Assembly: GCA_003130845.1 (NCBI GenBank)
Contig: QEXW01000151.1
Location: 1 to 54,239, forward strand
Reading direction: 5' to 3'
DNA length: 54,239 nt
From: Anaerolineae bacterium
Lineage (GTDB): Bacteria > Chloroflexota > Anaerolineae > Anaerolineales > Villigracilaceae
The translations under genes were made by a program, and so were the position numbers. The stretch's first letter is position 1, and every line of letters starts with the position of its first letter. The notes under the pieces are model-generated. The model saw nothing but the letters and a program-made list of their open reading frames with translations. It searched no databases and had not been told where the DNA came from. Below, in pieces: positions 18,894 to 45,415 of the stretch.

Positions 18894-19529
18894 TTACAGC
18901 AAGTCCATTTGGGCCGCTTTGGCAACCGCCTCAGCACGATTGTTGACTTCCATCTTTTCTAAAATGTGGCGAATATGTGTTTTGACGGTGTTTTCGGAAA
19001 TGAATAAAACGCTGGCAATTTGGGCAGTGGTTTGTCCACGTGCCAGGCATTTTAACACTTCAATCTCTCGCTCGCTCAACAGGCCACGATTGCGGTCCGT
19101 CTGAGAGCGGCGCACAGCTTGCAAAACGCGCGCGGTTACTTCTGGCGAGAGAACTGAGTTGCCTGCATGCACCTGCAAAATGGTGTTTTTGAGTGTATCG
19201 GGTTCGGTGTTCTTTAGCACGTAGCCGTTGGCGCCGGCTACAATCGCGCCGATGAGATCATCATCGTTTTGAGAGATGGTCAACATCAGCACTTTTTGGG
19301 AGGCATCTTTTTTGCGAAGCGCTGCTAACGTCTGGATTCCATCAAGAATCGGCATATTAATATCGAGCAGGACGACATCAGGGCGAATGCGCTCGATGAC
19401 CGTAAGCGCTTCTTGGCCATTGGCGGCTTCGCCAACGACATGAAACTCTGGCATTTCTTCAAGCAGGCTAATTAGGCCCCGCCGAAAGAGCGCATGGTCA
19501 TCTACAACCACAATCCGAACGCGATTCAT
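18894..19529 (-). CDS. NarL/LuxR-family response regulator
   Basis: The 211-residue protein has an N-terminal receiver (VRIVVVDDHALFRRGL, phosphoacceptor in DVVLLDINMP, Lys in YVLKNTEP) and a C-terminal LuxR-type helix-turn-helix (LSEREIEVLKCLARGQTTAQIASVLFISENTVKTHIRHI). It should bind DNA as a dimer when phosphorylated. Its ATG overlaps the stop of the histidine kinase gene by four bases, so the pair forms one two-component system. Candidate targets are the adjacent oxidase operon and the palindrome downstream; this is inferred from location only. Confidence 0.95.
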   Translation of the reverse strand: MNRVRIVVVDDHALFRRGLISLLEEMPEFHVVGEAANGQEALTVIERIRPDVVLLDINMPILDGIQTLAALRKKDASQKVLMLTISQNDDDLIGAIVAGANGYVLKNTEPDTLKNTILQVHAGNSVLSPEVTARVLQAVRRSQTDRNRGLLSEREIEVLKCLARGQTTAQIASVLFISENTVKTHIRHILEKMEVNNRAEAVAKAAQMDLL

Positions 19530-21325
19530 GGTCTCTCCCTAATCGGCACAGGCAAGCGCAGGGAGACCACCGTCCCCGCGCCGGGCTGGCTGGCAATTTG
19601 GAAATCAGCGCCAATGCTTTCAGCGCGTTCTCGCATTCCTCGTAAACCAAAGCGTAGATGGTCGTCTACTTGCTCAGGAGCAAACCCTTTCCCATCATCA
19701 CAGACTTCAATGGTCACACCATCTACCGACTGAAAACCACGAATAGAAACATGTGTCGCCTCGGCATGTTTGCGCACGTTGCTGAGTGCTTCTTGAATAA
19801 TGCGGATTAACTGCGCCTGGACATTTGGAGGGTATTCAACGGAGATGTTGAATGAGTCTAGGCTCACGCTCTGCCCGGTAGCCTGCTCGTAATCGGACGC
19901 CACTTGCCGCACCCAATCGGCTAGGCTAACCGAAGGAGCACGCCGCAAGTTTTCAATGGCTTGGCGAGCATCAATGTAAGCATCAGAGAGCGTGCGGTAG
20001 CTCGCTTGAAGTGTACGCGTCAGTCGTTCGGTCTCACCACGAGAGAGGTAGTTTTGCATTTGTGCTGCCTGGATTTTAAGAAAAGCCAAGGTTTGCGCCA
20101 AGCCATCATGAATTTCGCGCGCCAGACGGGCGCGTTCATCCACCACAGCCTGATATTCTAACTGAACCATCAAACGAGAATTTTGAATGAGCAGGGCAGC
20201 CTGCCCGGCCAGGGTTTCGAGCAAGGCCTGATGCCGCTGCGCAAACGATTGAGCGGTGTGTGAGCCGAGCAGTAAGACCCCCTCCGGTCCATGGTCTTGC
20301 CAGATGAGTGGTACCGCGTGCAAGACACGCCAAGTGTCGCGTTTGTTGAGCGTCACATTTTCGAGTGATAGGCTATTGCCGCTGGAAAGAACGCTCTTCC
20401 AAATGCCTTCCAAAAAAAGTTCATCCGGCAAAGTGGACGCATGAGGGGTATCGGCTTGAGCGCAAGCGAACACTTGTGGGCTGGTTTGAATCTGCCCAGG
20501 CAGGCCGGCAGGAATGTAGAGCAAAGCGAAATCTACAGCCAGTGTCTGCCGAATATTTTCAAGCAAGCTCTTGAGCAAGGCAGGTAAGTCAGAGCGTGGC
20601 GTAGCAGACGTTTGTAAATAGAGTAGCGCACCAATTTCTTGGTTTCGTTTTTGTAAACTCGCTAGTGCTTGACCAGTCAACCGTAAAATTTCTTCGATAT
20701 ATTGACGTGTTTCGGTCCGTATCGTAGGCGTTTCATCAAAGTAGAAGTTCAGCACGCCCACCTCACGACCGGCGTTCTCAAGCATAAAACACTCCACATA
20801 AGCCGCAAAGGGAGCCTCAGGCGGTATTAAAGGACAGCCTCGTTCACCGTGCTTCGAGGTGCAATTTTTGCATGCCTGGCGTGTTTCGGGGCTGGTGAGC
20901 CGTGCTGACCAAGTTTGCAAAGCGGTTGCAGGCACCTGCCCCTGAATAAGCGCTGGGAGTGATTGCCGCCATTCATCCAGCGGAATGAAGGAAGACCCCA
21001 CAGCCCGCAAGATGAGTTGACCATTTTCCAGAGCGGCTTCTAGGATGTCTTTTTCAGAATGGGCTTCTAAGAATTTGTGCTGCAAAGCCAGCAGGGCTTG
21101 TAATTGCTGGCGAACTTCTTCATTGTGCCCCTGCAAAGCAGCACGACGCAAAGACAGCCGCAACCAGAATTCCAAAACAGCCGTAAGCAGGCCGGCGGTC
21201 AAGAAGGTGATGAGAATCGAAAACCACAGCGCCCATGAGGCCTGCATGTAAAGATAAGAACCAAGCACCAGCACGAGCGCCGCAAAGGTTGCCCAGCGCG
21301 CCCGAATCAGTTCACGGTCATCCAT
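19526..21325 (-). CDS. NarX/DesK-type sensor histidine kinase with Cys cluster
   Basis: Two N-terminal helices (about 10-55) lead to two GAF-like regions and a HisKA_3 kinase. The H-box is ARLAREIHDGLAQTLAFLK (His about 400) and the ATPase domain shows IQEALSNVRKHAEATHV, CDDGKGFAPEQ and FGLRGMRERAE. In the first sensory region a CKNC-x8-C motif (CKNCTSKHGERGC, about residue 165) followed by a further Cys (ECFML) could bind an Fe-S cluster or zinc, or form thiol switches. The partner regulator follows with an ATGA overlap, and a peroxiredoxin gene precedes it by nine bases. Redox or oxygen sensing is therefore plausible but not shown. Confidence 0.93.
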   Translation of the reverse strand: MDDRELIRARWATFAALVLVLGSYLYMQASWALWFSILITFLTAGLLTAVLEFWLRLSLRRAALQGHNEEVRQQLQALLALQHKFLEAHSEKDILEAALENGQLILRAVGSSFIPLDEWRQSLPALIQGQVPATALQTWSARLTSPETRQACKNCTSKHGERGCPLIPPEAPFAAYVECFMLENAGREVGVLNFYFDETPTIRTETRQYIEEILRLTGQALASLQKRNQEIGALLYLQTSATPRSDLPALLKSLLENIRQTLAVDFALLYIPAGLPGQIQTSPQVFACAQADTPHASTLPDELFLEGIWKSVLSSGNSLSLENVTLNKRDTWRVLHAVPLIWQDHGPEGVLLLGSHTAQSFAQRHQALLETLAGQAALLIQNSRLMVQLEYQAVVDERARLAREIHDGLAQTLAFLKIQAAQMQNYLSRGETERLTRTLQASYRTLSDAYIDARQAIENLRRAPSVSLADWVRQVASDYEQATGQSVSLDSFNISVEYPPNVQAQLIRIIQEALSNVRKHAEATHVSIRGFQSVDGVTIEVCDDGKGFAPEQVDDHLRFGLRGMRERAESIGADFQIASQPGAGTVVSLRLPVPIRERP

Positions 21326-22009: not shown

Positions 22010-23143
22010 ATGAGCCATCCTTTGCCCCAACCAAGTGACGATGAATTTGAACTCAATCTGCTCAAGATGTGGACCGAGTTCAGGGGACGACATCAACGCT
22101 TGTTACCCCCTCAATTTGCAGAACATGAAGTAGTCAGTGGGCCCTATCCGCTTGACGTTAACTTTCTAGGAGCAGGTTATGTTCCGGCTTTTCCCAACCT
22201 GGATGCAATTGTCGTCTCATCAGATGGAGAACGACTCATCGCTAAGGGGGGCTACATTCGCCTAGCGCCAGGGCGCTACAAAATTTACTACGTGGACCGC
22301 CAGGAGCGATATACCGTTTTGCCTGAGGTGAAGGCGCTCAGCCAGGATGGCGCCAACATTGCGCTGACCTGTGGAATTACCTACAGGGTCCATGATTCTC
22401 TGGCCGTTCAAAATGTGCGCAACCCTTTGGATGCTTTGTTTAAGGCGTGTGAAGCCGCGTTGCGACAAGTGATTCGTAACCATAAGCATGATGAATTAAT
22501 CGGCGAACGGGTAGAGGAAGAAACCGGTGGCAGCGACCTAAAGATTATTTCTGACGATGAGATTTCGCAAAACGTCAAACTTCAGGTAGCCACCAGTGAG
22601 GCCTGCCGTGCATTTAGCTTGCATAACGTCCATGTTTTAGACCGGCAAGGAGATTGGCGGCTGCTCGATTTGCGCGAACAAGAAGCAGTACAACTGCGGG
22701 CTGGGAAACGGGAATTGAAACAAATCGAACAAAGAGCGCAAATCACCCACAAGCAACACCTGCTCACCGCCGAGCAAGGCACTGTGACCAGGCAGCAAGC
22801 CGATAACGAAAAAGCACGCCGCGAGATTTTGTTAGCAGCCGAAAAACTGGCTGTTGAGTTAGAGCAAATGCGTCAGTTGCCGCGTTTCAGTCATCAGGAA
22901 AATCTTAAAATCATTGAGGCCCGCATCGAAGCGTTGAAAATGCTTATGCAAGCGCAAGCCATGCCGGGCACCCCGCGCAACATTGACGATTTAAAAAACC
23001 TGGTCGAAAAAATCCTATCAGAAATGCCACGCATCAGAGACGAAGCCCAAGAGGGAGCACCTGGCTCGGAAGTCAAAAGCGCGCCGCCCAAAGAATCAAA
23101 CGACGAGTTCATTGAACTACTCATCCCCAAGAAAAAACGATAG
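22010..23143 (+). CDS. SPFH/band-7-like protein, first gene of the signalling operon
   Basis: This 377-residue protein has a beta-rich N-terminal part (VVSSDGERLIAKGGYIRLAPGRYKIYYVDRQERY), a segment resembling the SPFH core (VKALSQDGANIALTCGITYRV, LFKACEAALRQVIRNHKHDELIG), then a long charged coiled coil (LREQEAVQLRAGKRELKQIEQRAQI onward) to about residue 340. There is no transmembrane helix or signal peptide. SPFH proteins form large oligomers and scaffold signalling complexes; cytoplasmic ones may do so without membranes. The frame is open far upstream of the chosen ATG; the ATG at 22010 follows a modest GGGGAG and is where similarity-like composition begins. The preceding ~200 bases are divergent-promoter space shared with bcp. 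Confidence 0.7.
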   Translation: MSHPLPQPSDDEFELNLLKMWTEFRGRHQRLLPPQFAEHEVVSGPYPLDVNFLGAGYVPAFPNLDAIVVSSDGERLIAKGGYIRLAPGRYKIYYVDRQERYTVLPEVKALSQDGANIALTCGITYRVHDSLAVQNVRNPLDALFKACEAALRQVIRNHKHDELIGERVEEETGGSDLKIISDDEISQNVKLQVATSEACRAFSLHNVHVLDRQGDWRLLDLREQEAVQLRAGKRELKQIEQRAQITHKQHLLTAEQGTVTRQQADNEKARREILLAAEKLAVELEQMRQLPRFSHQENLKIIEARIEALKMLMQAQAMPGTPRNIDDLKNLVEKILSEMPRIRDEAQEGAPGSEVKSAPPKESNDEFIELLIPKKKR

Positions 23144-23159: not shown

Positions 23160-24251
23160 ATGGAAGCGCTCAATCCTTGGGTCGAACTCACACCGACGCC
23201 AACCGGCTGGTCAGGGAGTTTTGCCTGCCAGGTATCCATCTTGCCGCTCGAGATGCGACAAAAGTTGCGCTGGGGCTTCAATGCAGCCGCCCTGCTTTCA
23301 GAAGCCTTGGATCGACAAAAATTATTCATCGAATCGCAATTTCACGGTGACCCACTTCGGGAACCTGCCTCGGGGGAACGCGCCCTGGCGTTGCGCTGTC
23401 ATCAAGTGCCTGGGGAGGGTTTGCTTTTAGCGCTGGTTGGCAAAGTACAAGCCGCTACCGAAAGTCAGACCTACCAGAAAGCGCTGGAATACTGCCGCGA
23501 AGTTACCTCTACTTTCCCTTACGATTACAAACTCTCGCCGGCAAGCACGCGCGAAATGTTCGAGCGATTAACGGGACAAGCGTTATTCCTGGCCTGTGAG
23601 AGCGTGCAGAGCATTGCACGCCTCCTGCGCTTTGAGAGTCAAATTCGCACGCAGAAGAACCTAGCATACGTTACCGGTTTCTGGCAATCCACAGAACGGG
23701 CTGATGAGCAAATCTGGCGGGCAATGGCCGGCTACCCACATCCGGCGCTGCTGAACATCACACTGCAACCCGGTATCTTAGAAGCCGACGAACGCCAACT
23801 GCTGTGGGATATGAAAAGCGTCGCTGCAGCGCCTGTTCAGGAAATTTCAAACCTGCACCCGATACAGCCATTTGAAAAGTGGGTCGAAGCGTTTATTGAG
23901 CGGCGACTGAATCCCTGGAAGCGGTATTATCTCCTACAAGTTCATTTGCTGTGTCCGGCAGGGGTCACGCATGCCCTGGCACGACCGATTGGCGCAGCGC
24001 TCACCCGTGAAACTGCTGACTTGCTCTCACCAGGTTTTTTGATTGTCTATCCAGCCAATTCCACAAACAGGCAGGAGTGGAAAACGCGCATCCGTCAATT
24101 AGAACTCACCTCCACCCCCTTTCACCCGGCTCACCTGGCAAGCCTAAGCAATTTGGCAGATTTGAATGAAACCTGTGCCGTCTTTCGCTTGCCCTATCCG
24201 CATGAGCCCGGCTTACCCGGTGTGACCTTCCTGGAACCGCTTGAAAAATGA
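23160..24251 (+). CDS. Unrecognised 363-aa protein of the signalling operon
   Basis: The product is soluble, about 363 residues, mixed alpha/beta, with no signal or membrane helix. The last 30 residues, LADLNETCAVFRLPYPHEPGLPG, resemble the strand-turn that precedes the ATPase core in VirB4/TraC- and HerA-like proteins, where a LasLfrLP...G.PG pattern is common; the N-terminal region about residues 10-150 could likewise be a CagE/TrbE-type domain. No Walker motifs are present, so if this similarity is real it is a detached N-domain. The frame opens upstream inside the previous gene, but the ATG at 23160, 16 bases after that stop, gives the compact start. It overlaps the next gene by four bases. 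Confidence 0.6.
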   Translation: MEALNPWVELTPTPTGWSGSFACQVSILPLEMRQKLRWGFNAAALLSEALDRQKLFIESQFHGDPLREPASGERALALRCHQVPGEGLLLALVGKVQAATESQTYQKALEYCREVTSTFPYDYKLSPASTREMFERLTGQALFLACESVQSIARLLRFESQIRTQKNLAYVTGFWQSTERADEQIWRAMAGYPHPALLNITLQPGILEADERQLLWDMKSVAAAPVQEISNLHPIQPFEKWVEAFIERRLNPWKRYYLLQVHLLCPAGVTHALARPIGAALTRETADLLSPGFLIVYPANSTNRQEWKTRIRQLELTSTPFHPAHLASLSNLADLNETCAVFRLPYPHEPGLPGVTFLEPLEK

Positions 24252-26467
24252 ACTCGACATTTCACTCAACCAAGCGCATCCATATCCAGGTCATCAAACA
24301 TTTACCACTAGGTCTCTTCGTTGAGACAGATGATCACCGCCAGGGGCTTGTGCGGGTGCGTGAAATTTCGTGGGATGAACATAAGCGCCAACACTGGCGC
24401 ACATTGTATCCGCTGGGATGGAGTGGATGGGCTGCTCCACTCGCAGCAAAAACAGGACATCATCTGGAATACAGCCTGCGCTTAGTCGAAAATGACCCCT
24501 GGGAAGACCTTTCTGAGACGCTGGATCTCAACCAGGTTTATGAAGGAATTGTGACCGGTGTGGTAGCCTATGGGGCATTCATTGAGCTGACTTCTGGCCT
24601 GACGGGTCTGCTTCACAAATCACAATTGCCGGCCTGGGTTACCACCTCGCCGATTGAACTCTTCTGGCCAGGCGACCGTGTACGGGTACGCATTCGAGAA
24701 TTGAACTGCGAAACACGTCGGTTGAGTTTAGGGCTTCCGCCACTTTCTTCGTCACCCACCTCAGGGGCAATGAGCTGCGTACTGGTCGCTGATGCCTTGC
24801 GCAAAGAGAAGGGGACACAGTTAGAAGAGTTTTTGCGCTCGGGTTTGCCACCTCAACACATTCTGCTGGTAGAAGACGAACCAGAGCAACAAAAAGCGGT
24901 GGCAAATTGGCTGATGCACGTTGGTCAACGTGTGGAGACTGCGACCAGTGCCGAACAGGCCCTGCAGATGTTAGAAATCTCCCCGCCACACTTGGTTCTG
25001 ATTGATGTCGGCCTGCCTGGCATGAGTGGCACGCAATTGGCAACGCACATTTTGGAGAGATGGCCAAATGTTCGTGTGGTCATCGCAACAGACTGGGCAC
25101 GCCAAGAGAGTCTAGCAAGCGTATTAGATACACTACGTGAACGGGGCATCGCATTGTATCCTAAGCCACTCCTACCCGAAGACCTGATTGATATGCTCAA
25201 AAATAGCAGCCACCAAGCCCCTGGGCTGCCGGTGGAATCAGAGCAAAATCGGCCACGAGAGCTCACAACCGCCTCTCAAATCAGCAATCACACACACAGT
25301 GCGATTCACCGCCTGTTACGACAAGCGCGGCGTGAATTAGGATTTGACCAGGCGATTTTGTTCACGTTTGACCCAACGCACCGCGCCGTCACCCTCTACG
25401 ATCGTTCAGGAGACGGGTTCCTAGAAAAAAACGCCCTGCCAGCGCTGATCTATAGCCCCGTGCGTGATGTGGCCGAAGATGGAATCACCCTGCTCATGCC
25501 TAGTATTGAAGCACGTGACCGCGACCGATTTCGCTATCTGCTTGAATGGATGCCTGCCCTGGCAAGTTGCATCGGCGTTCCCGTGCGGAGCACCCTGCAA
25601 GCCCAATTTGCGTTGTTTCTATTTGGAGAGCGGCCCCGTCCGATCACAAAAGAACACCGCCTGTATGCCGAAGCAATTGCCCAATCTATCAGTGCCGTTC
25701 TGGAACAACAAACTTTCCAACAAAAGGCCATGATGATTCAACGTACAGCCTTAATTGGACACCTGACACGCGCCATGACGCACGAAATCAACAATTTGCT
25801 TGGTCCTCTGGCAGCACGACTTGATACTTTGCAAACCAGGCTGGCAAAATTGGAACAAGATGCGCGACCGGAGCAAATCAAAGCACATCGCGAAGCCTTG
25901 TTACAGACTGCCTTTGACGATAGTCGCCAAATTATTCAACGCATCATCAACACCACGCGCATGTTCACTCGCATCACCTCGAAAGGCAAAAACGAGGTCT
26001 TGCGCTTAGATGAAATCATTGAAGAAACCATCTATCTGCTACGGGAAAGCGAAAATCAATCACAAGTGCGTTTTGATTTTCAGCCTCCTAAACGGATGCT
26101 GGTCATTCGTGGGCAGGCGGCAGCGTTGGAACAAATTTTGCTCAACTTGCTGCTAAACGCCATCCAGCAAATTAAAGAAACGCGTCCTGGCATCAGCGGC
26201 TGGGTGCAAGTGCGATTTGATGAACAAATCAACCCATCTGAAACTGGGTATTTCCGCATTTTGGTTGAAGACAATGGCCCCGGCATTCACGCAAGGCTAT
26301 GGGAAAAAATCTTCGAGGCCGGTTACTCCACCCGCCGCGATGGCAGCGGAATCGGTCTGTACATCTCTCGCAGCCTAGTGGAGGAGATGGGCGGCCGGCT
26401 CTATGTTGCCGAAAGCTATATTTTGGGCGGAACCTCCTTTGCACTTGAACTTCCATACCAACTGTGA
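24248..26467 (+). CDS. S1 RNA-binding/receiver/GAF hybrid histidine kinase
   Basis: 739 residues with an unusual order. An N-terminal S1-like strand block (IHIQVIKHLPLGLFVETDDHRQGLVRV) and a clear S1 domain (about 90-160: GIVTGVVAYGAFIELTSGLTGLLHKSQL, GDRVRVRIRELNCETRRLSLG) are followed by a receiver (about 200-315: ILLVEDEPEQQ, phosphoacceptor in LVLIDVGLPGMSG, Lys in LYPKPL), a GAF-like region, an H-box (MTHEINNLLGPLAARL, His about 511) and an HATPase domain (LLLNAIQQI, EDNGPGIHARLWEKIFEAGYS, GSGIGLYISR). It is soluble. S1 domains bind single-stranded RNA or ribosomes, so this kinase may sense RNA or translation state. ATGA overlap upstream and GTGA overlap downstream. Confidence 0.88.
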   Translation: MNSTFHSTKRIHIQVIKHLPLGLFVETDDHRQGLVRVREISWDEHKRQHWRTLYPLGWSGWAAPLAAKTGHHLEYSLRLVENDPWEDLSETLDLNQVYEGIVTGVVAYGAFIELTSGLTGLLHKSQLPAWVTTSPIELFWPGDRVRVRIRELNCETRRLSLGLPPLSSSPTSGAMSCVLVADALRKEKGTQLEEFLRSGLPPQHILLVEDEPEQQKAVANWLMHVGQRVETATSAEQALQMLEISPPHLVLIDVGLPGMSGTQLATHILERWPNVRVVIATDWARQESLASVLDTLRERGIALYPKPLLPEDLIDMLKNSSHQAPGLPVESEQNRPRELTTASQISNHTHSAIHRLLRQARRELGFDQAILFTFDPTHRAVTLYDRSGDGFLEKNALPALIYSPVRDVAEDGITLLMPSIEARDRDRFRYLLEWMPALASCIGVPVRSTLQAQFALFLFGERPRPITKEHRLYAEAIAQSISAVLEQQTFQQKAMMIQRTALIGHLTRAMTHEINNLLGPLAARLDTLQTRLAKLEQDARPEQIKAHREALLQTAFDDSRQIIQRIINTTRMFTRITSKGKNEVLRLDEIIEETIYLLRESENQSQVRFDFQPPKRMLVIRGQAAALEQILLNLLLNAIQQIKETRPGISGWVQVRFDEQINPSETGYFRILVEDNGPGIHARLWEKIFEAGYSTRRDGSGIGLYISRSLVEEMGGRLYVAESYILGGTSFALELPYQL

Positions 26468-29400
26468 GCAAAGCGATGTGCCGTGTCTTGATTTTGGATG
26501 ATAACCCTTTATACGCCGAGACACTTCAACTCATCCTGCAAGAGGAGGCCGAAACCTATTCTGAAATTGTCACCTGCGCCGAAGATGCTATTGAAAAAGT
26601 AACGCAAGCAGTTCGGCGGGGGAAACCCTATGAAGTCTTGTTGATTGACCAGCGCCTAGGAGCGGGCAAAGATGGCATCCAAGTTTTTGAGGAACTGCGC
26701 GCTATCAGCCCTAATTCCGACGGCATCCTGTTTACCGGCTATGACGACCCTGAAAGCGGCCTGCGCGCTTATGAAGCCGGGGCATTTCGCTATCTGCCTA
26801 AAACCGCCAATAATCGTGAAATCTTGTTTGTCTTTCGCGCCTTGCGACAATGGCGCAAAGAACAACGCGAACATAAGTGGCAGAAAATCTTCAGCGAAAT
26901 GATGGAAGCCTCCATCCGTGAGCAGGAATTTCATGCCGCGGCGCGCGAAATCGTGCAACGCTCGCTCAAACTTGGATTTGCACGTGCCCACCTGTTTTGG
27001 GTTCCAACCGGACGTGAGGCCAATCAACAAGGGTTGCTGCTTGGGATTCGCTGCGCCGGGGAAGGGCGCATTCCAGATTTTGGGAGCCGGTTGTTTCCGC
27101 TTGGCGAATGGATTGACCTCGATTTACTCCAACCAGGAAGATTTTCCCTCTCCTTGCGCGAAGCCGAGCTAGAGTGCGTTGCAGCCTCTATGCGCGCTCA
27201 TGGGTATCAGCCACCCCTCGGCGAAGTAACGCTCTTGCCCCTGTTTAGCGGAGAACGTTTGTTGGGCGTTTTAATGCTTGACTATGGAAACACCAACAAA
27301 TTTCTGAGCGAACACGAACGCGGCTGGTTAGAGTTTTACGCACGGCAAGTTTCTCTGGCGTTGGAACATGCCGCACTTTACAGTCAAGAAAAAAAGAACA
27401 GCCGAGAACACACTGCCGCCAATCGGATTGGGCAAGAAATCAATGCAGAAGCAACCCATCGTACAGTAGAACAAATCCTAGAAGATGTGCGCGACAGAAT
27501 TGGCAGCGTTTTCTTTCACATTGAAAATTTCACTGCGCTCCTCATCGAAGAAGAGCATGGTACCCCTCAAGTACGTTTGAAATACCGAAAAGGCAAAAAA
27601 TGTACATCGCCGCGAGGGCTGCGCGCAAATAGACTGGAAACATGGTTTTTAGCACACGGAGAACCTTTGCTTCTTTCAGAGAACATAACAGACTTCGCTC
27701 GCCATCACCGAATACGCTTGCTCGGTGAACTACCTGCTTCTTGGATGGGCATTCCCCTACGAGTCAATGGAAAATTAATCGGTGGCTTGATTCTGCAATC
27801 CTTTCGGCAAAAACGACTATTTACCAAGCGCGATTTACATTTCCTCACCCTGATAGCCGACCAGGTAGCCGGGGCCATTCAAAACTGCCGCAGCGCCGAA
27901 CGCGAACGCCGTGAAATGGAACGGCTGGATGTGTTGAGCCGAGCAGGGTTCGAGATGTTGCAAGTCGCTCGTGAAAATGAAGGAAATTTGTGGAAAACCG
28001 CTCTCACCCTGGCAACCGCCAGGTTTGGGGTAGGGTTCAATCGCGCCATGCTGTTCCTGCTGGTCGAACGAACGTCACTCATCGGTCAAGCAGGCATTGG
28101 TACCGACGATAAAGAAAAAGCGCAGCGCGATTGGGAACATGATGAACAGCAAAACTATACCTTCAGCAATTTTCTGAGCGATTTACGGACGCGTCGTCTC
28201 AAACTGACCGATTTCGATACGCTAGTACAAACGATTGAAATTCCGCTCAAAAACCGACAGGATGCTTTTGCGCACGTCATGCAAAGCGGAAACATATTGC
28301 AGCTCGATTCTGTGCAAGCACGCACACAATTACCGCCAGAACTCACCGCCAAGATTACCCCCACTGCTTGCGCTGTTTTGCCCCTCTTTACCAGCAAAGG
28401 CAAAGTGGAAGGGGTTGTGCTGGTGGACAACAAACACAACCGCAAGCCAATTCTAGAACGCGACTTAAATCGCCTACAAACCGTCTTGAACTATGCCGGC
28501 CTGATTTGGGAAACGTTGCGCGAACGAGAAAAAAGCGAAAACCTGCTGAATGCAAACCAGGAAATCATGAGCCGTTCTGGGCGAGAAAATCTAAAAGATA
28601 CGCTTTCTCTTATCTGCAATGCAGCCTTAGGTTTAAGTGAAGCCGATTGGTGCATTATTTACCCTTTTATCGAGCATTCTCAACCGCTGGCTTTCGATGT
28701 CGAAAACATCAGTTACGCCGGAGAACTTCTTTTGAGCATGGATACGCTCATCAAACATCACCCAAGACGCGGCGGCATCACCATGCACATCCTGAGCAAA
28801 AACTGCCTATACTTTGAGGATGTTTATGCACCACACGCCCGCCTGGGCCGCAAGCGCATTGGAGAACATTCTTTTATCCAGCGCGAAAAGGTGCGAGCGA
28901 TGATTGGGATGAGCATTCGCGATGCCTTTTCGGGTGCGCCCTTGGGGGTGTTTTACTTGAACTTTCGTGAGCCACGCCGTTTTTCAGAACGCGATATTCA
29001 ACACGCCCAATCGTTTGCCAGCCTGGCCGCCTTTGCCATTGCCAACACGCGCCGCATGGATGAGCAGAAACATCGTCGGCGACTCGATGCCGCGTTACAA
29101 ACTGCAGAGGCCATCAATGCCGCAGTCAGCCTCGATGAAATGCTTCAAAACGTACAGGAACGCTTACATCGTTTCTTTCACGAAACTACTCTGTGCATCT
29201 TGAGTTATGATGAAGAAGAGCAAGCGCTCAAATTTGCGCCTGGCGCATTGGAATTTTACAAAATCACCAACCCGAAATATCGTCGGGTACAAACTTTTCC
29301 CCTTGCTGGACATTCCATTGCCTGTGCAGTGGCGCGCAAAACCTTACACAGTGGGCAAATTGAAACGCTCAACGTTCCGAACGTGCATGAACGACCTGAA

Positions 29401-30288
29401 TACCTAGGGCTGATTCTAGAAACACAATCTGAATTATGCGCTAGTTTGGTCAGCACAAACCATCAACTCTTAGGGGTATTAGCACTCGAACGGCGTGAAC
29501 TCGCTGGCTTCGATACAGATGACGAAGCACTCGTCAAAACCGTTGCCCAACAATTGAGCCTGGGGTTTGAGCGGTTCAAACAAGAACAGGAAATCAGTTT
29601 CAACAAAACCATCGCCGCTTACAATGCCTGGGCTTCGGATATGGCACACGAAATCAACGAACAAGCCGGCAACATTCAGGGTTGGGCTTATCTTATTCAG
29701 GAACACGCCACAAATCACCCAGAAATTCAGAAATACGCCAGAGACATTGAACAAAGTGCACAAACCTTACTGCTTGCCAGTCCGCGCAGTGACCAAGGAC
29801 GCACCTTATTGGCGTTGGATACCGCATTACAAAAATTTGCCGACCGCATCTGTAAGCAAAAAGAAATTTCCCTTCAATTTTCCTGCAATGCAGCCGGTGT
29901 TTTGGTCCAAGCCAATCCCTTATACTTTGAGCGCATTTTGCGGCATCTCATTCGCAATGCCGAACGCGCAATGCGCGACTGCGATAACAAACAAATCATT
30001 CTTCGAACACAAGTACTGGACGAAAACACGGTCGAAATCCAAATCCAAGATTTCGGCCCCGGGATACCAGATAAAATTCGCCCTCTTCTCTTTCAAACCA
30101 ACGTCACCACCAAAGGGGGTGGCGGCAACGGTCTACTCATCACCCGTCAATTGGTTGAGGAGATGAACGGACGTATCCGGCTACTGCCACCCGGCACTCA
30201 AAAAGGTGCCACTTTCTCGATTAAACTGCCTATTTATAAAGTACCTACCCAGGAAGAAACATCCAATGAACTCGTCACAACTGGATGA
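26464..30288 (+). CDS. Receiver/multi-GAF histidine kinase
   Basis: The 1274-residue protein starts with a receiver (CRVLILDDNPLYAETL, phosphoacceptor in VLLIDQRLGAG, FTGYDD, Lys in YLPKTANN), followed by about five GAF-like sensory units between residues 140 and 1045 (repeated patterns such as GVLMLDYGNTNKFLSEHERGWLEFYARQVSLALE and ADQVAGAIQN). The C-terminus is a kinase with an H-box in ASDMAHEINEQAGNIQGW (His about 1062), N-box LIRNAERAMRDC, and G-boxes DFGPGIPDK and GGGGNGLLITR. It has no membrane helix. The GTG at 26464 overlaps the previous stop; an in-frame ATG four codons later is possible. It may receive phosphate from or pass it to the neighbouring receivers. Confidence 0.92.
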   Translation: MSKAMCRVLILDDNPLYAETLQLILQEEAETYSEIVTCAEDAIEKVTQAVRRGKPYEVLLIDQRLGAGKDGIQVFEELRAISPNSDGILFTGYDDPESGLRAYEAGAFRYLPKTANNREILFVFRALRQWRKEQREHKWQKIFSEMMEASIREQEFHAAAREIVQRSLKLGFARAHLFWVPTGREANQQGLLLGIRCAGEGRIPDFGSRLFPLGEWIDLDLLQPGRFSLSLREAELECVAASMRAHGYQPPLGEVTLLPLFSGERLLGVLMLDYGNTNKFLSEHERGWLEFYARQVSLALEHAALYSQEKKNSREHTAANRIGQEINAEATHRTVEQILEDVRDRIGSVFFHIENFTALLIEEEHGTPQVRLKYRKGKKCTSPRGLRANRLETWFLAHGEPLLLSENITDFARHHRIRLLGELPASWMGIPLRVNGKLIGGLILQSFRQKRLFTKRDLHFLTLIADQVAGAIQNCRSAERERREMERLDVLSRAGFEMLQVARENEGNLWKTALTLATARFGVGFNRAMLFLLVERTSLIGQAGIGTDDKEKAQRDWEHDEQQNYTFSNFLSDLRTRRLKLTDFDTLVQTIEIPLKNRQDAFAHVMQSGNILQLDSVQARTQLPPELTAKITPTACAVLPLFTSKGKVEGVVLVDNKHNRKPILERDLNRLQTVLNYAGLIWETLREREKSENLLNANQEIMSRSGRENLKDTLSLICNAALGLSEADWCIIYPFIEHSQPLAFDVENISYAGELLLSMDTLIKHHPRRGGITMHILSKNCLYFEDVYAPHARLGRKRIGEHSFIQREKVRAMIGMSIRDAFSGAPLGVFYLNFREPRRFSERDIQHAQSFASLAAFAIANTRRMDEQKHRRRLDAALQTAEAINAAVSLDEMLQNVQERLHRFFHETTLCILSYDEEEQALKFAPGALEFYKITNPKYRRVQTFPLAGHSIACAVARKTLHSGQIETLNVPNVHERPEYLGLILETQSELCASLVSTNHQLLGVLALERRELAGFDTDDEALVKTVAQQLSLGFERFKQEQEISFNKTIAAYNAWASDMAHEINEQAGNIQGWAYLIQEHATNHPEIQKYARDIEQSAQTLLLASPRSDQGRTLLALDTALQKFADRICKQKEISLQFSCNAAGVLVQANPLYFERILRHLIRNAERAMRDCDNKQIILRTQVLDENTVEIQIQDFGPGIPDKIRPLLFQTNVTTKGGGGNGLLITRQLVEEMNGRIRLLPPGTQKGATFSIKLPIYKVPTQEETSNELVTTG

Positions 30289-31927
30289 ATCCTTCACCCG
30301 TCCTATTCCTAAAGACAAACCCCGTGTTTTGATTGTCGAAAACAACGAAACCAGTCGAAACATGTATCGAGATTTGCTTATCCATTGGGGATACTTTCCG
30401 GTAGTGGCCCAAGGCACGGGACAAACCTTGCTAAAAGATGCCCGCCAAAAAGCCGAACAATACCGCTGTCACCTGGCACTGGTAGATATGCGGCTACTGG
30501 ATGACGTAGATGATGAAGACAAAAGCGGCCTGGCGCTCATCTCGCAATTACGGCCAGCGGTTTCGATTCTAATGAGCGGCTACGGTAACTTGGCCGATTC
30601 GCGTCGCGCTACAGAAGAAGGCGCCGCCGGGTTCATTGGGAAAAGCGAAGGTCCTCGTGTGTTCAAAGAAAAACTCGAAAGAGAAGCATGCAAACTGTGC
30701 GCTGCCAAGAACGGCCTGGTCATCGAACCGGTAGAACTCATGGACAATCTCCGCAAAAATTTATTGTTGCACTCCGCTGCTTATTTTGATGACCAGATAG
30801 CAGACTGTTTGCTTAGGTTGTTCCCCCAAGCCCGTTACCTACGGCTAGAAAAAATTGGCACCACCCATATTGCATCCGATTTATCGGCCGTCCCGCGCCC
30901 ACGCTCTGTCATCCTAAAAGTGTACGAAGACGACCGGCAACCGGTCATCGTGAAACTAGCGCGCCAAACAAAAATCACGCACGAATTAGAGAACTTCCAT
31001 CAATTCATTGATGGAAAACTCCGCGGTAACTATGTGCCGGTGTTGCGCGGATACGTTTTGGGATGGGATATTGGAGGCATCAAACTTTCGTATGTTGGCG
31101 ACATCGGACAAAACTTCTCCAACTTTTTTCAAAGCCATTCGACGCACAAAATTAAACGCAGCCTGAGCAATTTCTTTGAAGAGACCTGGCAGCCACACTA
31201 TCGGCGGGCTGTTGAAGCCAACAACCTGTCACTGTTTGAACTATATTGCCGTACCTGGGATAAAGAATGGGTCGAACGAATTAAAAATTTCACCGATTCA
31301 CATCCCGAAGAAATCATGGGGACAGAACTTTGGGCACAAGTGCAAGCCCCCGAACCCATCGAATGGATGAAACACAACATTTTCGGACAACGCGATGTGA
31401 GCATGACAGAGCATACCAAGCTGGCCATTACACACGGTGACTTACATGGCGATAACATCCTAACCGATGAAGATGGCAACCTGTGGGTGATTGATTTTGA
31501 ACGCACCGGCCAAGGACACATCTTGCAAGATTTCATCGAACTCGAATCGGACATCATCAACCGCCTGCCCTGCACGCCAGAGAGTTTTCCGGCATTTTTA
31601 TCCATTTGCATCACGGCTTGCTTGCCGCGCGAAATCAAAAATCTGGAATTGACGGAGGAAATTGGAGCACAAAGCGAAACAAAAAAGGCAATGTCCATCA
31701 TCTCTCACTTACGTTCTCTAGCACGGAGCATCACAGGCATACGTGATGCACGACAATACCTGCTTGGATTACTTTTCAACACGTTATTCCGCGCCACTCT
31801 CTCTACCAGCACCTCTCGCAAACCCTGTCAGCAACGTGCATTTATGCTGGCAAGCATTCTCTGTCACCGCCTTGACCACTGGGACGATGCCTGGCCACCG
31901 GCCCATTGGTTACCATTTCTTCAATAG
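30266..31927 (+). CDS. Receiver fused to APH/choline-kinase-like phosphotransferase
   Basis: The 553-residue product opens with a receiver (about 13-140; phosphoacceptor in LALVDMRLLDD, switch Ser in LMSGYGN, Lys in FIGKSEG), whose strand-1 acidic pair is EN rather than DD. After a linker comes a protein-kinase-like fold: VIVKLARQTKITHELENF supplies the nucleotide-binding Lys and Glu, the catalytic loop is THGDLHGDNIL (His-x-Asp...Asn) and the metal site is VIDFER, as in aminoglycoside and choline kinases. All catalytic residues seem intact. The ATG at 30266, preceded by AGGAAG, lies inside the end of the previous gene. A receiver driving such a kinase is uncommon; the substrate (small molecule, protein or RNA) is unknown. 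Confidence 0.82.
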   Translation: MNSSQLDESFTRPIPKDKPRVLIVENNETSRNMYRDLLIHWGYFPVVAQGTGQTLLKDARQKAEQYRCHLALVDMRLLDDVDDEDKSGLALISQLRPAVSILMSGYGNLADSRRATEEGAAGFIGKSEGPRVFKEKLEREACKLCAAKNGLVIEPVELMDNLRKNLLLHSAAYFDDQIADCLLRLFPQARYLRLEKIGTTHIASDLSAVPRPRSVILKVYEDDRQPVIVKLARQTKITHELENFHQFIDGKLRGNYVPVLRGYVLGWDIGGIKLSYVGDIGQNFSNFFQSHSTHKIKRSLSNFFEETWQPHYRRAVEANNLSLFELYCRTWDKEWVERIKNFTDSHPEEIMGTELWAQVQAPEPIEWMKHNIFGQRDVSMTEHTKLAITHGDLHGDNILTDEDGNLWVIDFERTGQGHILQDFIELESDIINRLPCTPESFPAFLSICITACLPREIKNLELTEEIGAQSETKKAMSIISHLRSLARSITGIRDARQYLLGLLFNTLFRATLSTSTSRKPCQQRAFMLASILCHRLDHWDDAWPPAHWLPFLQ

Positions 31928-31938: not shown

Positions 31939-33045
31939 ATGACCAACACTGACCCCCGAAAAACCAGCATCATGCGAGAACTTGGCAAGGAGCATGACAT
32001 TACCTACCGCCAGGAAGTCCTCAAGCCCCTTTTCGAATGCATTAAAAGCGCCGACTCTTGTTATCTGATTGGCGCCGGCAGCATGGGTAAAACCCGTCTG
32101 CTCGACCACCTGGTGCGAACCGATGTACAACAACACTACCTCGGAGAACGCGCCGCACACACACTCATCATTCGCCTCGATATGAACCGACTGAGTGACT
32201 TTTCCGAATGGGAATTTTATGAACTGATGCTGTTTAACATCGTTCAAGTCTCCGGTCAGTGCGGCATTCCAGAAATCGAGAAAAAATCAGCGAGCTTCTT
32301 GCAAACCTTCCTCATGCCAGTGCTAGACCATCCTGGCAACACCCTCAAAGCCCTGCGTTTTTTGGAACTGGTCATCACCAACTTGATGGTGGTAGATGAA
32401 GATTTGGCAATTTGCTTTTTGATGGATGAATTCGATGAAGCCTATCGGCGTTTGCCGACGAAAGTATTTGCCCATCTGCGCGGCATTCGCGATGCCAACA
32501 AAAACCGCCTATGTTACGCCCTGCTCGTGCGCAACGCGCCAGCCTATTTGCGCCCCAACTTGATGGAACACGAAGGGTTTTATGAGCTACTCTCGCGCAA
32601 TCCAATTCCCATTGGCCCCTACGCCAGGCAAGATGTGCATGCCATGCTCCAGCAGTTAGAAGCACGATTCGGATACCCTCTCACTGAAGCCATACGCGAC
32701 AAAATCTATGAAATCAGTGGCGGGCATCCGGGCACTGTTTTGGCAATTTTTACCAATCTCCGCCGCACCGTAGAGGGTGTCCCTTATCGCTTCGACCCGC
32801 GCTGGCTCATCAAAGAGGAGAACGTGAAAGAAGAATGCCGTAAATTACTAGCCAGCCTGGAACCAGATGAACAGGTTGGCATCCTAGAATTTGCCAAAGG
32901 GAACATGGCCGATGCATCGCCGTTAATCAAGACGTTGCGTCTCAAAAAACTGCTTACCTCGGTAGAAGGCCAGGTGCCGCAAATTTTTAGCCCGGTGTTC
33001 GCTGCTTACCTGCAAGCCCTGCCGGAAAACACCAAACCCGCCTGA
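31939..33045 (+). CDS. STAND/AAA-like P-loop ATPase with winged-helix end
   Basis: The 368-residue protein has a Walker A motif GAGSMGKTRLL (about 45-55), a Walker B segment LAICFLMDEFDEAYRR, an arginine-rich region that could hold a sensor (AYLRPNLMEHEGFYELLSRNPIPIGPY) and a C-terminal helical bundle resembling the winged helix that follows STAND and AAA_16-type ATPases. These enzymes act as nucleotide-driven switches. No effector domain is attached. AGCGAGGT eight bases upstream supports the ATG at 31939, 11 bases after the previous stop. It ends the six-gene operon and its stop codon abuts the stop of the convergent YitT-like gene. Confidence 0.85.
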   Translation: MTNTDPRKTSIMRELGKEHDITYRQEVLKPLFECIKSADSCYLIGAGSMGKTRLLDHLVRTDVQQHYLGERAAHTLIIRLDMNRLSDFSEWEFYELMLFNIVQVSGQCGIPEIEKKSASFLQTFLMPVLDHPGNTLKALRFLELVITNLMVVDEDLAICFLMDEFDEAYRRLPTKVFAHLRGIRDANKNRLCYALLVRNAPAYLRPNLMEHEGFYELLSRNPIPIGPYARQDVHAMLQQLEARFGYPLTEAIRDKIYEISGGHPGTVLAIFTNLRRTVEGVPYRFDPRWLIKEENVKEECRKLLASLEPDEQVGILEFAKGNMADASPLIKTLRLKKLLTSVEGQVPQIFSPVFAAYLQALPENTKPA

Positions 33046-43466: not shown

Positions 43467-44639
43467 ATGGCCGAAAAGATTCTCATCATAGATGACGACC
43501 TAGATACCCTGCGTCTGGTCGGTCTTATGTTGCAAAAGCAAGGGTATAGCATCATGGCTGCCAGTTCTGGCCCCCAAGGGTTACAGATGGCCTTCGAAAA
43601 CCCGCCCGACTTGGTTTTGCTAGACGTTATGATGCCCGGCATGGACGGCTACGAAGTTGCCCGCCAATTGCGCGCCAACCAGCTCACGGTCAACATCCCC
43701 ATCCTGATGTTCACCGCCAAAAGCCAGCTAGATGACAAAGTCACCGGGTTCGAGGCAGGTGCCGATGACTACCTAACCAAGCCCACGCACCCTTCCGAAT
43801 TGCAAGCGCACGTCAAGGCGTTATTGGCGCGTTCTGCCAAATCCAGAGTGAACCCACCTACCGGTCCTGGCGAATCGCCCGCCTATCTCATCGGTGTTTT
43901 GGCAGCACGTGGAGGGTTAGGCGTCACCACGGTCGCCGCCAATTTAGCCATCTCCATCCAAAAGAGTCTCAACTTGTCCACCATCTTGGTGGAATTTTGC
44001 CCTGGGCAAGGCACCTTGGCCTACGACCTAAACTTATCCAAAACCAACGGGTTGGTGGAACTGCTCAACCTGCCACAAGCCGGTCAAATCACCCGCAATG
44101 CTGTCAAAGAGCGCTTGGTTTTGCATCCATCGGGCTTGGATATTCTAATTGCTTCTTCACAACCCAAAGATGGAATTTTGCAATCACGCATCGAACACTT
44201 CGAAGTGTTACTTAACCGGCTACGCTACATGGCAAAATACGTTATTGTAGATTTGGGAAGCGGCTTGAGACCGGTCAATCAAAAGATTGTCTCTGCGTTT
44301 AGCGAACTCATCGTAGTTGTCGAACCCTTTGAACACTCCCTACGCCACTCGCGCGCACTGATTGACGACTTAATCGAACTAGGGGTAGACAAAACCCGCA
44401 TTCACGTTGCGGTTAACTACCGCTTGCGCTCCGAGGCTCAACTTTCGGTGCCGCAAGTACAAGAACGCTTGAAATACAGCGCCGATGTCACATTTACCCC
44501 TGCGCCAGAACTCATGCTACAGGCTATTCGCATGCAAACCTTTGCATACCTGGTCCAGCCCGAAAGCCTGACCAACCAGCAATATACGAACCTGGCAAGG
44601 AAAATTGAAACCCGCGCACCCCGTCCGAAACCCGCCTGA
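43467..44639 (+). CDS. Receiver fused to CpaE-like MinD/ParA ATPase domain
   Basis: A typical receiver (residues 1-120; ILIIDDDLDTLR, VLLDVMMPGMDGYE, Lys in YLTKPTHP) is followed by a MinD/ParA-type domain (about 135-380). The Walker A region reads LAARGGLGVTTVAANLA where active ParA enzymes have KGGxGKT, so both lysines are gone and ATP hydrolysis is doubtful. The Walker B-like strand is YVIVDLGSGL. This resembles CpaE, a pilus-localising protein with an atypical receiver, but no pilus genes are adjacent. AGGAGAG precedes the ATG; the gene overlaps the sirtuin gene by one base. Confidence 0.88.
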   Translation: MAEKILIIDDDLDTLRLVGLMLQKQGYSIMAASSGPQGLQMAFENPPDLVLLDVMMPGMDGYEVARQLRANQLTVNIPILMFTAKSQLDDKVTGFEAGADDYLTKPTHPSELQAHVKALLARSAKSRVNPPTGPGESPAYLIGVLAARGGLGVTTVAANLAISIQKSLNLSTILVEFCPGQGTLAYDLNLSKTNGLVELLNLPQAGQITRNAVKERLVLHPSGLDILIASSQPKDGILQSRIEHFEVLLNRLRYMAKYVIVDLGSGLRPVNQKIVSAFSELIVVVEPFEHSLRHSRALIDDLIELGVDKTRIHVAVNYRLRSEAQLSVPQVQERLKYSADVTFTPAPELMLQAIRMQTFAYLVQPESLTNQQYTNLARKIETRAPRPKPA

Positions 44640-45415
44640 TGCAAACCTTTTCCGGCCAAACCCTGGAATTAATCGAATACGCCGCCGAGCTACTTGCCAA
44701 AGCCCGCCACGCCGTCGTCCTCAGCGGGGCGGGGCTTTCCACCCCTTCTGGCATTCCTGACTTTCGGTCTGAAGGTACAGGATTATGGTCGCGCGATGAA
44801 CCGCTCGAAGTCGCTTCGCTGACCACCTTTCGCACCGCGCCAGAACAATTTTTTCGCTGGTTCCATCCCCTTGCCAGCCAAATTTTTAACGCCCAGCCCA
44901 ACCCCGGGCACCTAACCCTGGCAGAACTGGAAGAAAAAGGTCGCATTCAGGCCATCATCACCCAAAACATTGACATGCTCCATCAGAAAGCCGGTTCACG
45001 ACATGTCATTGAAATGCATGGCACCCTGCGCACACTTTCCTGCACGCAGTGCTACCAGCAACAGCGGTACGAAAATTACCTGCCGGCCTTCTTAACCCAT
45101 GGCACCATCCCCCGCTGTCCACACTGTGGCGCCATCCTCAAACCAGATGTCATTCTGTTCGGCGAGCAACTACCGCAAAAAGCCTGGTATGAAGCGCAGC
45201 TCGAAGCCAGACGCTGTGACCTGATGATGGTCGTCGGCTCCTCATTGGAAGTCTTACCTGTGGCCAGCCTACCCATGCAAGCCATAGATAGGGGCGCTCA
45301 CTTAATCATCATCAACAACAGCATCACTTACCTGAATGTCCGCGCAGATGTCGTCTTACAAGAAGACGCAGCGCTCGTTCTTCCTGCCATTTCTAAACGA
45401 GTTCAATATGCTTGA
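44639..45415 (+). CDS. cobB: Sirtuin NAD-dependent protein deacylase
   Basis: 258 residues with all sirtuin motifs: GAGLSTPSGIPDFRS, TQNIDMLHQKAGS, the catalytic His in IEMHGTL, a zinc ribbon with CTQC and CPHC, KPDVILFGEQLP and VVGSSLEVLPVASLP. It removes acyl groups from lysines using NAD. The ATG shares its A with the stop of the receiver-CpaE gene, and the next gene starts inside the sirtuin end, so all three are cotranslated. A role in regulating the kinase or ATPase partners by deacylation is possible but is inference. Confidence 0.95.
   Translation: MQTFSGQTLELIEYAAELLAKARHAVVLSGAGLSTPSGIPDFRSEGTGLWSRDEPLEVASLTTFRTAPEQFFRWFHPLASQIFNAQPNPGHLTLAELEEKGRIQAIITQNIDMLHQKAGSRHVIEMHGTLRTLSCTQCYQQQRYENYLPAFLTHGTIPRCPHCGAILKPDVILFGEQLPQKAWYEAQLEARRCDLMMVVGSSLEVLPVASLPMQAIDRGAHLIIINNSITYLNVRADVVLQEDAALVLPAISKRVQYA

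What the first reader, a model, noticed from the sequence alone, without database searches (positions are those of the whole stretch)
24248..26467. S1 RNA-binding domain on the N-terminus of a hybrid histidine kinase
Seen: GAFIELTSGLTGLLHKSQL and GDRVRVRIRELNCETRRLSLG match an S1 fold before a receiver, GAF and complete kinase core. S1 domains bind RNA or ribosomes; as input to a two-component kinase this is a rare combination. Inference: the kinase could monitor RNA or stalled translation, fitting a stress or phage-sensing role.
Basis: partly seen in the sequence, partly recalled or inferred. Interest (0 to 1): 0.75.

Follow-up and report, generated by a model that had tools for sequence, protein, structure and literature searches.

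The report
S1-domain sensor kinase of effector cassette
A bacterial signalling kinase that carries two ribosomal-S1-type, RNA-binding-like domains heads a conserved gene cassette in some uncultured bacteria (one carrier is named Anaerolineales), whose output protein is a kinase here and carries a caspase-like or CHAT death-type domain in a few relatives, so it may be an RNA-triggered alarm system.

Summary
It is not a one-off: a second kinase gene (REC-GAFs-HK) follows directly in 33 of 33 loci with sequence to judge, over eight families and a second class. Next comes a receiver fused to a variable output: here an active-looking APH-type kinase (TCAD9); in single relatives TCAD9-caspase, TCAD9-CHAT-TIR or EAD7-REC-CHAT; in four others a kinase domain with lost catalytic residues plus an OmpR-type (or, in one, similar) C-terminus. 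A STAND-like ATPase often follows. In this family the cassette sits between a SPFH + VirB4-N-terminal-domain-like pair and the ATPase; a sister genome lacks exactly these three genes at the same site.

Best reading: a cytosolic, probably RNA-responsive two-kinase system driving conflict-type effectors, like Detocs in principle but built of other parts. RNA binding and antiviral function are inferred, not shown. RNA-contact positions are mostly kept in the second S1 and absent from the first. Death-type effectors were identified in only 3 of 33 loci, and few flanking genes match defence models. The held papers I searched do not describe the architecture.

The parts
22010..23143 (+). SPFH/Band_7 protein (377 aa from the ATG at 22010; the listed ORF begins at 21617). 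First gene of the operon in this family.
   Evidence: Band_7 E 2.2e-6, over its cut-off; start chosen from homologues; highest 19-residue hydropathy 1.19
23160..24251 (+). VirB4/TrwK N-terminal-domain-like protein without the ATPase domain (363 aa from the ATG at 23160).
   Evidence: No Pfam family. AlphaFold pLDDT 81, pTM 0.84. Foldseek R388 type IV secretion (TrwK) chains from E 3.7e-7; VIA-align 7o43_A Z 17.8, rmsd 3.6, 270 aligned
24248..26467 (+). S1-S1-REC-GAF-histidine kinase, the finding (739 aa). Its ATG overlaps the stop codon of the gene before.
24275..24487 (+). S1 repeat 1 (aa 10-80), diverged; no canonical aromatic pair, R36 in place of His
24527..24736 (+). S1 repeat 2 (aa 94-163); F111, H123 and R157 present
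   Evidence: Pfam S1 1.5e-14
24857..25201 (+). Receiver domain (aa 204-318), phospho-acceptor D253, K306
25298..25705 (+). GAF domain (aa 351-486)
   Evidence: GAF_2 3.1e-5, below its curated cut-off
25736..26461 (+). Kinase core (aa 497-738): DHp helices with H512, then HATPase_c
26464..30288 (+). REC-GAF(5)-HK, second histidine kinase of the cassette (1274 aa, GTG start)
   Evidence: five GAF stretches, HATPase_c and REC; invariant D62, H1062 and D1196 in 9 of 9
30266..31927 (+). REC-TCAD9 (APH-type kinase fold), output protein (553 aa from the ATG at 30266; the listed ORF begins at 30206). Kinase motifs intact.
   Evidence: TCAD9 4.4e-23 (82.6 bits, cut-off 40), APH 5.1e-9, REC 4e-7; invariant D94, K146, K250, E260, D412, N417 and D430 in 9 of 9, numbered from 30206
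31939..33045 (+). P-loop ATPase, STAND-like (Walker A, DE, GGHPG), 368 aa from the ATG at 31939
   Evidence: AAA_16 weak, E 0.03; motif residues invariant in 9 of 9
24246..31927 (+). Three-gene stretch (7.68 kb) absent as a unit from the same chromosomal site of a sister genome (G009, L067)
   Evidence: blastn of both loci; ORFs

Best explanation
It is the sensor kinase of a cytosolic two-kinase signalling cassette that commands a receiver-coupled effector, most likely against invaders or severe stress. Proposed steps: (1) the bS1-type S1 pair, mainly repeat 2, binds single-stranded RNA or an RNA-protein surface such as a ribosome; (2) binding changes the S1-REC-GAF-HK dimer so that H512 is phosphorylated; (3) phosphate passes among the three receivers (its own D253, that of the GAF-rich partner kinase, that of the output protein), the partner adding a second input through its GAF domains; (4) the phosphorylated receiver releases the output: here an APH-type kinase that would phosphorylate a small molecule or a protein and work with the STAND-like ATPase and the SPFH/VirB4N pair; in some relatives a caspase- or CHAT-bearing effector. 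Shown by sequence: domain order, intact catalytic residues, gene order, absence as a unit at one site, a variable output. Inferred: RNA as ligand, direction of phosphate flow, target of the output kinase, antiviral purpose.
For: Architecture and active-site residues. S1 type, strand order and RNA-face residues. The S1 kinase is followed by the GAF kinase in 33 of 33 loci with sequence to judge: 16 in this family and 17 elsewhere. Output gene in those 17: TCAD9 profile over 85 bits in 13; REC + Trans_reg_C with a weak TCAD9-profile match, behind a short receiver-type ORF, in 2; EAD7-REC-CHAT in 1; contig end in 1. Kinase residues K, HGD..N and D are kept in 30 of 34 TCAD9-type proteins and lost in L121, L124, L126 and L161: three of these carry Trans_reg_C and L124's C-terminus resembles theirs, so the output is either an active-looking kinase or a DNA-binding type. 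Death-type outputs: caspase C14 (8.9e-20) in L157, CHAT (8.8e-11) + TIR_2 (weak, 0.0013) in L113, EAD7 + CHAT in L123/L162; candidate His and Cys of the caspase-type dyad (motifs recalled) are visible in the printed sequences. Absence as a unit. SPFH + VirB4N linked to the cassette in a second family in another order (L161).
Against: No test of RNA binding. S1 repeat 1 lacks the binding residues; H123 is replaced in 7 of 31. The GAF domains may be the true sensors. Death-type domains were identified in the output gene of only 3 of 33 loci; I scanned that gene with Pfam in 9 of the 33, while in this family its length (524-587 aa in the 16 loci) leaves little room for more. Three or four loci have a DNA-binding-type output, which fits plain gene regulation. 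Flanks: of 47 PADLOC families matched at 1e-10 the 25 shown are met by at most 4 of 95 flanking proteins; no baseline was run. No such protein on plasmids, phages or viral contigs. TCAD9 is kin to common kinase folds: below its cut-off it also rings in 7 of 14 control genomes, over the cut-off in 0.
Confidence: 0.45

Rival explanations
1. An ordinary stress- or growth-response phosphorelay: the S1 pair reads translation or RNA state and the cassette resets transcription or metabolism, with no role against invaders. The death-type domains are lineage-specific add-ons.
For: OmpR-type DNA-binding domain on the output protein in L121, L126 and L161, probably L124, and on the ATPase in L114; few defence matches in the flanks; not seen on plasmids, phages or viral contigs; death-type domains in only 3 of 33 loci.
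Against: Caspase, CHAT-TIR and EAD7-CHAT outputs; TCAD9, a domain named from conflict systems; patchy presence (26 of 152 genomes of the family by the VirB4N marker) and absence as a unit.
Confidence: 0.3
2. The S1 pair does not sense RNA: it is a dimerisation or docking platform that ties the kinase to another protein or to the ribosome, and the GAF domains or the receiver carry the signal.
For: Repeat 1 is diverged yet has its own invariant set (R38 and E39 in 31 of 31, W42 in 28 of 31), as expected of a protein interface; the tandem resembles bS1, whose repeats can bind protein (recalled).
Against: Repeat 2 keeps F111, R157 and mostly H123 over deep divergence, more than a scaffold would need.
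Confidence: 0.35
3. A chance gene fusion, assembly error or decaying gene.
For: One full-length copy in the genome; broken frames in two relatives, L070 and L077.
Against: The same architecture at 43-59% identity on 10 other contigs of the family and in other families and another class; catalytic residues kept.
Confidence: 0.01

Closest known systems
Detocs (defensive two-component system)
   Same: A three-gene defence family named as a two-component system whose best-described effector degrades ATP on phage recognition (passage of PMC11249213). That it consists of a sensor kinase, a receiver and a receiver-effector with varied effectors is recalled. Here too a sensor kinase stands next to a receiver-effector gene.
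   Different: The sensor is a bS1-type S1 pair, where Detocs has TPR (recalled); two kinases; outputs are TCAD9 kinase, caspase, CHAT or DNA-binding; STAND-like ATPase and SPFH/VirB4N partners; no receiver-only gene in this operon.
[quoted passage not shown] 2020, PMC7159879; 2021, PMC8195603)
   Same: TCAD9 is described as associated with vWA-MoxR-VMAP (legend passage of PMC10910872); EAD7 and an active APH-type kinase are mentioned in the 2020 paper (passages); in the 2021 paper some TERNS3 systems have effector modules with OST-HTH and several OB-fold S1 domains (passage).
   Different: No MoxR, vWA or VMAP match in the six proteins. The 2020 paper reports no histidine kinase among the vWA-associated effectors; here two kinases and receivers are the core, and S1 is on the sensor kinase.
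REC-HK 'hybrid response regulators' such as Leptospira LvrB
   Same: Receiver ahead of the kinase core; best Foldseek match of the model (8vc9, E 1.4e-17).
   Different: The matched chain is 376 aa; this protein adds S1-S1 and GAF, and has other partners.
Ribosomal protein bS1 and other S1-domain proteins
   Same: Profiles of the two S1 repeats best match the last two of four repeats of an own-genome protein taken to be bS1 (L088).
   Different: Only two repeats, fused to a kinase; that other S1 protein is a separate gene.
VirB4/TrwK ATPases of type IV secretion
   Same: The 23160-24251 protein has the VirB4 N-terminal fold.
   Different: No ATPase domain matched; no secretion gene among the six.

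Membership tests
Two-component histidine kinase | H-box histidine, N and G boxes, HATPase_c | tested here: met
   H512 in 31 of 31; N637, D675 and G677 in 30 of 31, one row ending before them; HATPase_c 1.4e-19
S1 domain family (PF00575) | Profile match over the curated cut-off | tested here: met
   54.6 bits against 22 for repeat 2; repeat 1 not called by Pfam in this protein
S1 domain family (PF00575) | Five strands in the S1 order (three strands, helix, two strands) | tested here: met
   Both units of the AlphaFold model, block pLDDT 68-88 over aa 11-170; barrel closure not measured and no structure search made with this part alone
S1 domain family (PF00575) | RNA binding | not testable with these tools
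   Only residue conservation
Ribosomal protein bS1 | Four to six S1 repeats and no enzymatic domain (recalled) | tested here: not met
   Two repeats plus REC-GAF-HK
MoxR-vWA ternary conflict system | MoxR AAA+ and vWA gene pair | tested here: not met
   No such Pfam match at E <= 1 in the six proteins
MoxR-vWA ternary conflict system | TCAD or EAD domains | tested here: met
   TCAD9 4.4e-23 in the window; EAD7 5.5e-9 in L123; no EAD7 in the window's genome
Detocs | HK gene next to a receiver-effector gene (recalled) | tested here: met
Detocs | TPR sensor on the kinase (recalled) | tested here: not met
   S1-S1-REC-GAF instead
Detocs | Receiver-only gene (recalled) | tested here: inconclusive
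   None in the window operon; receiver-type short ORFs in L126 and L161 (partial matches) and in L078, which has no S1 kinase
Detocs | Phage-triggered abortive response | not testable with these tools
   no experiment
VirB4 ATPase | N-terminal domain plus RecA-like ATPase domain | tested here: not met
   Aligned over TrwK residues 26-407 only; no Pfam match
STAND NTPase | Walker A/B and GxP-type motif (motif recalled) | tested here: inconclusive
   Motif residues invariant in 9 of 9, but Pfam only weak (AAA_16 0.03) and in the PDB by sequence only three BceA chains near E 0.09

The most novel reading that the evidence does not exclude
A first family of histidine kinases that sense RNA directly: a bS1-derived S1 pair watches cytosolic RNA or ribosomes during infection and, through a two-kinase phosphorelay, fires receiver-gated outputs (TCAD9 kinase, caspase, CHAT-TIR), i.e. 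an RNA-triggered bacterial immune or programmed-death system built on two-component signalling.
Probability: 0.25. Interest if true: 0.87.

Novelty: new variant of a known kind. Interest (0 to 1): 0.62.

Why it matters
Two-component systems are a very common bacterial signalling design, yet my searches of the held papers (mostly listings seen) turned up no histidine kinase described as reading RNA. This cassette gives a conserved, divergent set of candidate kinases with their partners and outputs, so the question becomes testable. The change of output between a kinase, a caspase, CHAT domains and DNA-binding domains also links classical phosphorelays to the TCAD/EAD conflict systems, for which the 2020 paper reports no histidine kinase among the vWA-associated effectors (PMC7159879, passage).

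Tried and rejected
Chance match or artefact: rejected by orthologues. SPFH + VirB4N + ATPase as the obligatory core: rejected, since at most loci outside the family no SPFH/VirB4N match was seen and within it SPFH-VirB4N-ATPase occurs alone (L067, L073). My first conclusion that SPFH/VirB4N occur only in this family was wrong: L161 has both downstream of the cassette, and a weak VirB4N match lies in a HerA/FtsK-type protein of G438. A first motif search by text pattern missed the kinase motif of L113; the alignment shows it intact. Mobile location: 0 of 178 plasmid records and 0 of 4 phage records with a match cover 80% of the S1-S1-REC query; in viral contigs 47 stretches fitted a pattern and none was confirmed. 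Defence-island location: not supported; no baseline for random loci was run. Net charge of the S1 repeats is not informative (means +1.1 and -1.6). PDB sequence searches for the VirB4N-like protein and for the L157 C-terminus gave nothing; for the ATPase three BceA chains near E 0.09. Literature searches for the architecture; of the papers listed I saw passages of PMC8195603 and PMC7159879 only, the rest as listings. 'Detocs' with 'two-component' was in four papers, one seen as passages. A genome-contig scan with the single protein gave one orthologue (L022, Anaerolineales bacterium UBA5796) and two kinase-domain matches. Other phyla were not surveyed with genome searches. The trees are quick trees; the careful search was not finished. 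On rechecking I lowered the best explanation from 0.48 to 0.45 and the novel case from 0.27 to 0.25, and raised the first rival from 0.28 to 0.30, because death-type outputs number 3 of 33 loci, fewer than my draft implied.
Full report
OBSERVATION. The ORF 24248-26467 (+) encodes 739 aa. Pfam: S1 95-162 (1.5e-14), Response_reg 205-316 (7.3e-17), GAF_2 353-486 (3.1e-5, below cut-off), HATPase_c 623-738 (1.4e-19), HisKA weak (0.29). The first 177 aa match ribosomal protein S1 in the PDB (1.6e-31 for the whole chain, best single stretch 1.8e-7). The receiver is N-terminal to the kinase core.

CONSERVATION OF THE PROTEIN. Searching 200 relatives with the N-terminal 201 aa gave 13 genomes at E <= 1e-15, own genome counted: 11 with the full-length protein, one truncated S1-S1-partial REC gene (G014, L035) and one S1-only protein (G066, L036). 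In the class, 22 of 396 genomes matched the S1-S1-REC profile at 1e-20: own and G061, 14 with full-length orthologues in other families, one at a contig edge (G903), the truncated G014 and four whose match covers only the second-S1 part of the profile. G524 and G549 lie in another class; in their family 4 of 41 genomes match at 1e-60. One carrier is named: L022/L029, Anaerolineales bacterium UBA5796, an order of Chloroflexota. Over 31 orthologues H512, D253 and K306 never vary. In S1 repeat 2, F111 is kept in 30, R157 in 28, H123 in 24, D at 153 in 24 (the window has N); in repeat 1 R38 and E39 are invariant, but the aromatic pair and His are not there. That these positions are the RNA-contact ones of S1 domains is recalled.

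OPERON. On the + strand lie SPFH (22010-23143), a protein with no Pfam family (23160-24251), the S1 kinase, a REC-GAF(5)-HK (26464-30288), REC-TCAD9 (30266-31927) and a P-loop ATPase (31939-33045). Each start overlaps the gene before or lies within 17 bases of it. Highest 19-residue hydropathy is 1.16-1.42 in five of the six proteins and 1.74 in the ATPase (residue 144), against 1.87 in a membrane protein of the window used as control; the ATPase value is borderline and was not followed up. The unknown protein has the fold of the VirB4/TrwK N-terminal domain (Z 17.8 over 270 residues; the next group, ESX-3 chains, 10.6). All 152 held genomes of the family were searched with it: 26 carry it, own included. 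I examined all 26: at this site the S1 kinase is present in 20, absent in 4 (L067 and L073 with only SPFH-VirB4N-ATPase; L076 and L078 with GAF kinase and TCAD9), and cannot be judged in 2 (L074 ends behind VirB4N; L079 has a shortened VirB4N and an unmatched ORF up to the contig end). In L070 and L077 the S1 kinase frame is broken.

ABSENCE AS A UNIT. G009, of the same genus, has the same chromosomal site with flanks at 77-79% nucleotide identity and SPFH-VirB4N at 70%, but the 7.68 kb from 24246 to 31927, exactly S1 kinase + GAF kinase + TCAD9, are missing, with 48 unaligned bases in their place. G009 also gave no S1-kinase match in the genome search. In the VirB4N tree the window joins G009 (98), and the two kinds of absence each need two changes (quick tree).

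THE CONSERVED CASSETTE. Outside the family the S1 kinase is followed by the GAF kinase in 17 of 17 loci (14; L157 and L158; L177); inside the family in 16 of 16 with sequence to judge (window; 8; 7, two of them with broken frames). Six further loci end at a contig edge in or just after the S1 kinase, or hold only a part of it (L027, L032, L071, L072, L178, L179). Of the 17 outside loci the output gene has a TCAD9 profile score above 85 bits in 13; in L126 and L125/L161 a short receiver-type ORF and then a REC + Trans_reg_C protein with a weak TCAD9-profile match follow; in L123/L162 it is EAD7-REC-CHAT; in L118 the contig ends. An ATPase of the same family follows in 8 (L113 behind a transposase-like gene, L114, L115, L116, L117, L119, L157, L177), lies upstream in 1 (L122), is not seen in the fetched stretches in 6 (L120, L121, L123, L124, L125/L161, L126), and cannot be judged in 2 (L118, L158). 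In L161 (G779, another family) SPFH and VirB4N genes lie downstream of the cassette, an independent link in another gene order.

VARIABLE OUTPUT. The window's output protein is REC-TCAD9 with intact kinase motifs. Over 34 TCAD9-type proteins (16 of this family's S1-kinase loci, 14 of the outside loci, one in L076, two in L078, one in L087; the cut one of L158 was left out) the catalytic Lys, HGD..N and Asp are kept in 30 and lost in L121, L124, L126 and L161. Trans_reg_C ends L121, L126 and L161, and the C-terminus of L124, not scanned with Pfam, resembles theirs (E 1.7e-18). L157 adds a caspase domain (Peptidase_C14, 8.9e-20); L113 adds CHAT (8.8e-11) and a TIR_2 stretch (0.0013, weak), its receiver is not called by Pfam, and its end overlaps a transposase-like gene. 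L123/L162 is EAD7-REC-CHAT, in a genome with 22 EAD7 matches at E <= 0.001; the window's genome has none, and none of 14 control genomes rings. So death-type domains were identified in 3 of 33 loci. I gave Pfam the output gene of 9 of the 33 (window, L113, L120, L121, L122, L123, L126, L157, L161); the count is a lower bound.

FUNCTION. Shown: a conserved two-kinase cassette with a receiver-coupled, variable output, and a bS1-type S1 pair on the first kinase. Inferred: RNA or ribosome binding by repeat 2, gating of H512, phosphate flow to the output receiver, and a conflict or death role. For the conflict role speak the effectors, TCAD9 and EAD7, patchy distribution and absence as a unit. Against it speak the DNA-binding variants, the small number of death-type outputs, the flanks and no trace on mobile records. 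Flanks: 95 proteins, up to five nearest ORFs of 120 aa or more at 23 loci, matched 47 PADLOC families at 1e-10, of which 25 are shown; the two viperin-type models are matched by 4 and 3 proteins, subtilase by 2, and the others shown (DpdF, type I methyltransferase, PsyrT and one possible Cas3-type model) by 1 each. In Pfam, Radical_SAM, DHO_dh, TPR and metabolic families head the shown part of the list. Eight of the 95 looked at one by one gave two subtilases and one TIR-type match, in L073.

KNOWN SYSTEMS. It works like Detocs in principle (passage of PMC11249213; its gene make-up recalled), but sensor, number of kinases and outputs differ. It shares TCAD9 and EAD7 with the systems of Kaur et al. 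(passages of PMC7159879; TCAD9 by the legend of PMC10910872), but has no MoxR-vWA pair, and that paper reports no histidine kinase among the vWA-associated effectors. S1 domains are named in effector modules of some TERNS3 systems (passage of PMC8195603). I found no paper that describes an S1-domain histidine kinase; subscription papers are mostly not held.

VERDICT. I rate it a new variant of a known kind (effector-driving two-component signalling), interest 0.62.

Noticed in passing
window 53232-54239 (open at the contig end): CHAT caspase-like domain (1.3e-28) at the end of the same contig, behind a C39-peptidase-like/SH3 gene (51778-53232).
   Followed up: no
window 43467-46583: REC + BcsQ/AAA_31-type (ParA-like) protein, SIR2 family protein and GAF-histidine kinase in a row, overlapping or abutting.
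   Followed up: no
L087 5124-10048 (own genome, contig C106): A second GAF-kinase + REC-TCAD9 pair in the same genome, without an S1 kinase beside it.
   Followed up: partly
L078 11213-16998 (G054): REC-CHAT, REC-TCAD9, two receiver-only genes and a GAF kinase stand upstream of SPFH-VirB4N-GAF kinase-TCAD9-ATPase: two related modules side by side.
   Followed up: partly
L040 9471-12380 (G438): A 969 aa protein with a weak VirB4N-like stretch ahead of a HerA/FtsK-type ATPase, near a Ser/Thr protein kinase gene.
   Followed up: partly
L035 8377-9147 (G014): Truncated S1-S1-partial REC gene without kinase, perhaps a remnant of the cassette.
   Followed up: partly
L113 10588-15062 (G686): The TCAD9-CHAT-TIR gene overlaps the start of a DDE-transposase-like gene, as if interrupted.
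   Followed up: no
window 18894-21325 (-): LuxR-type response regulator and GAF/HisKA_3 kinase pair next to an AhpC/TSA gene, divergent from the operon and conserved in G009.
   Followed up: no
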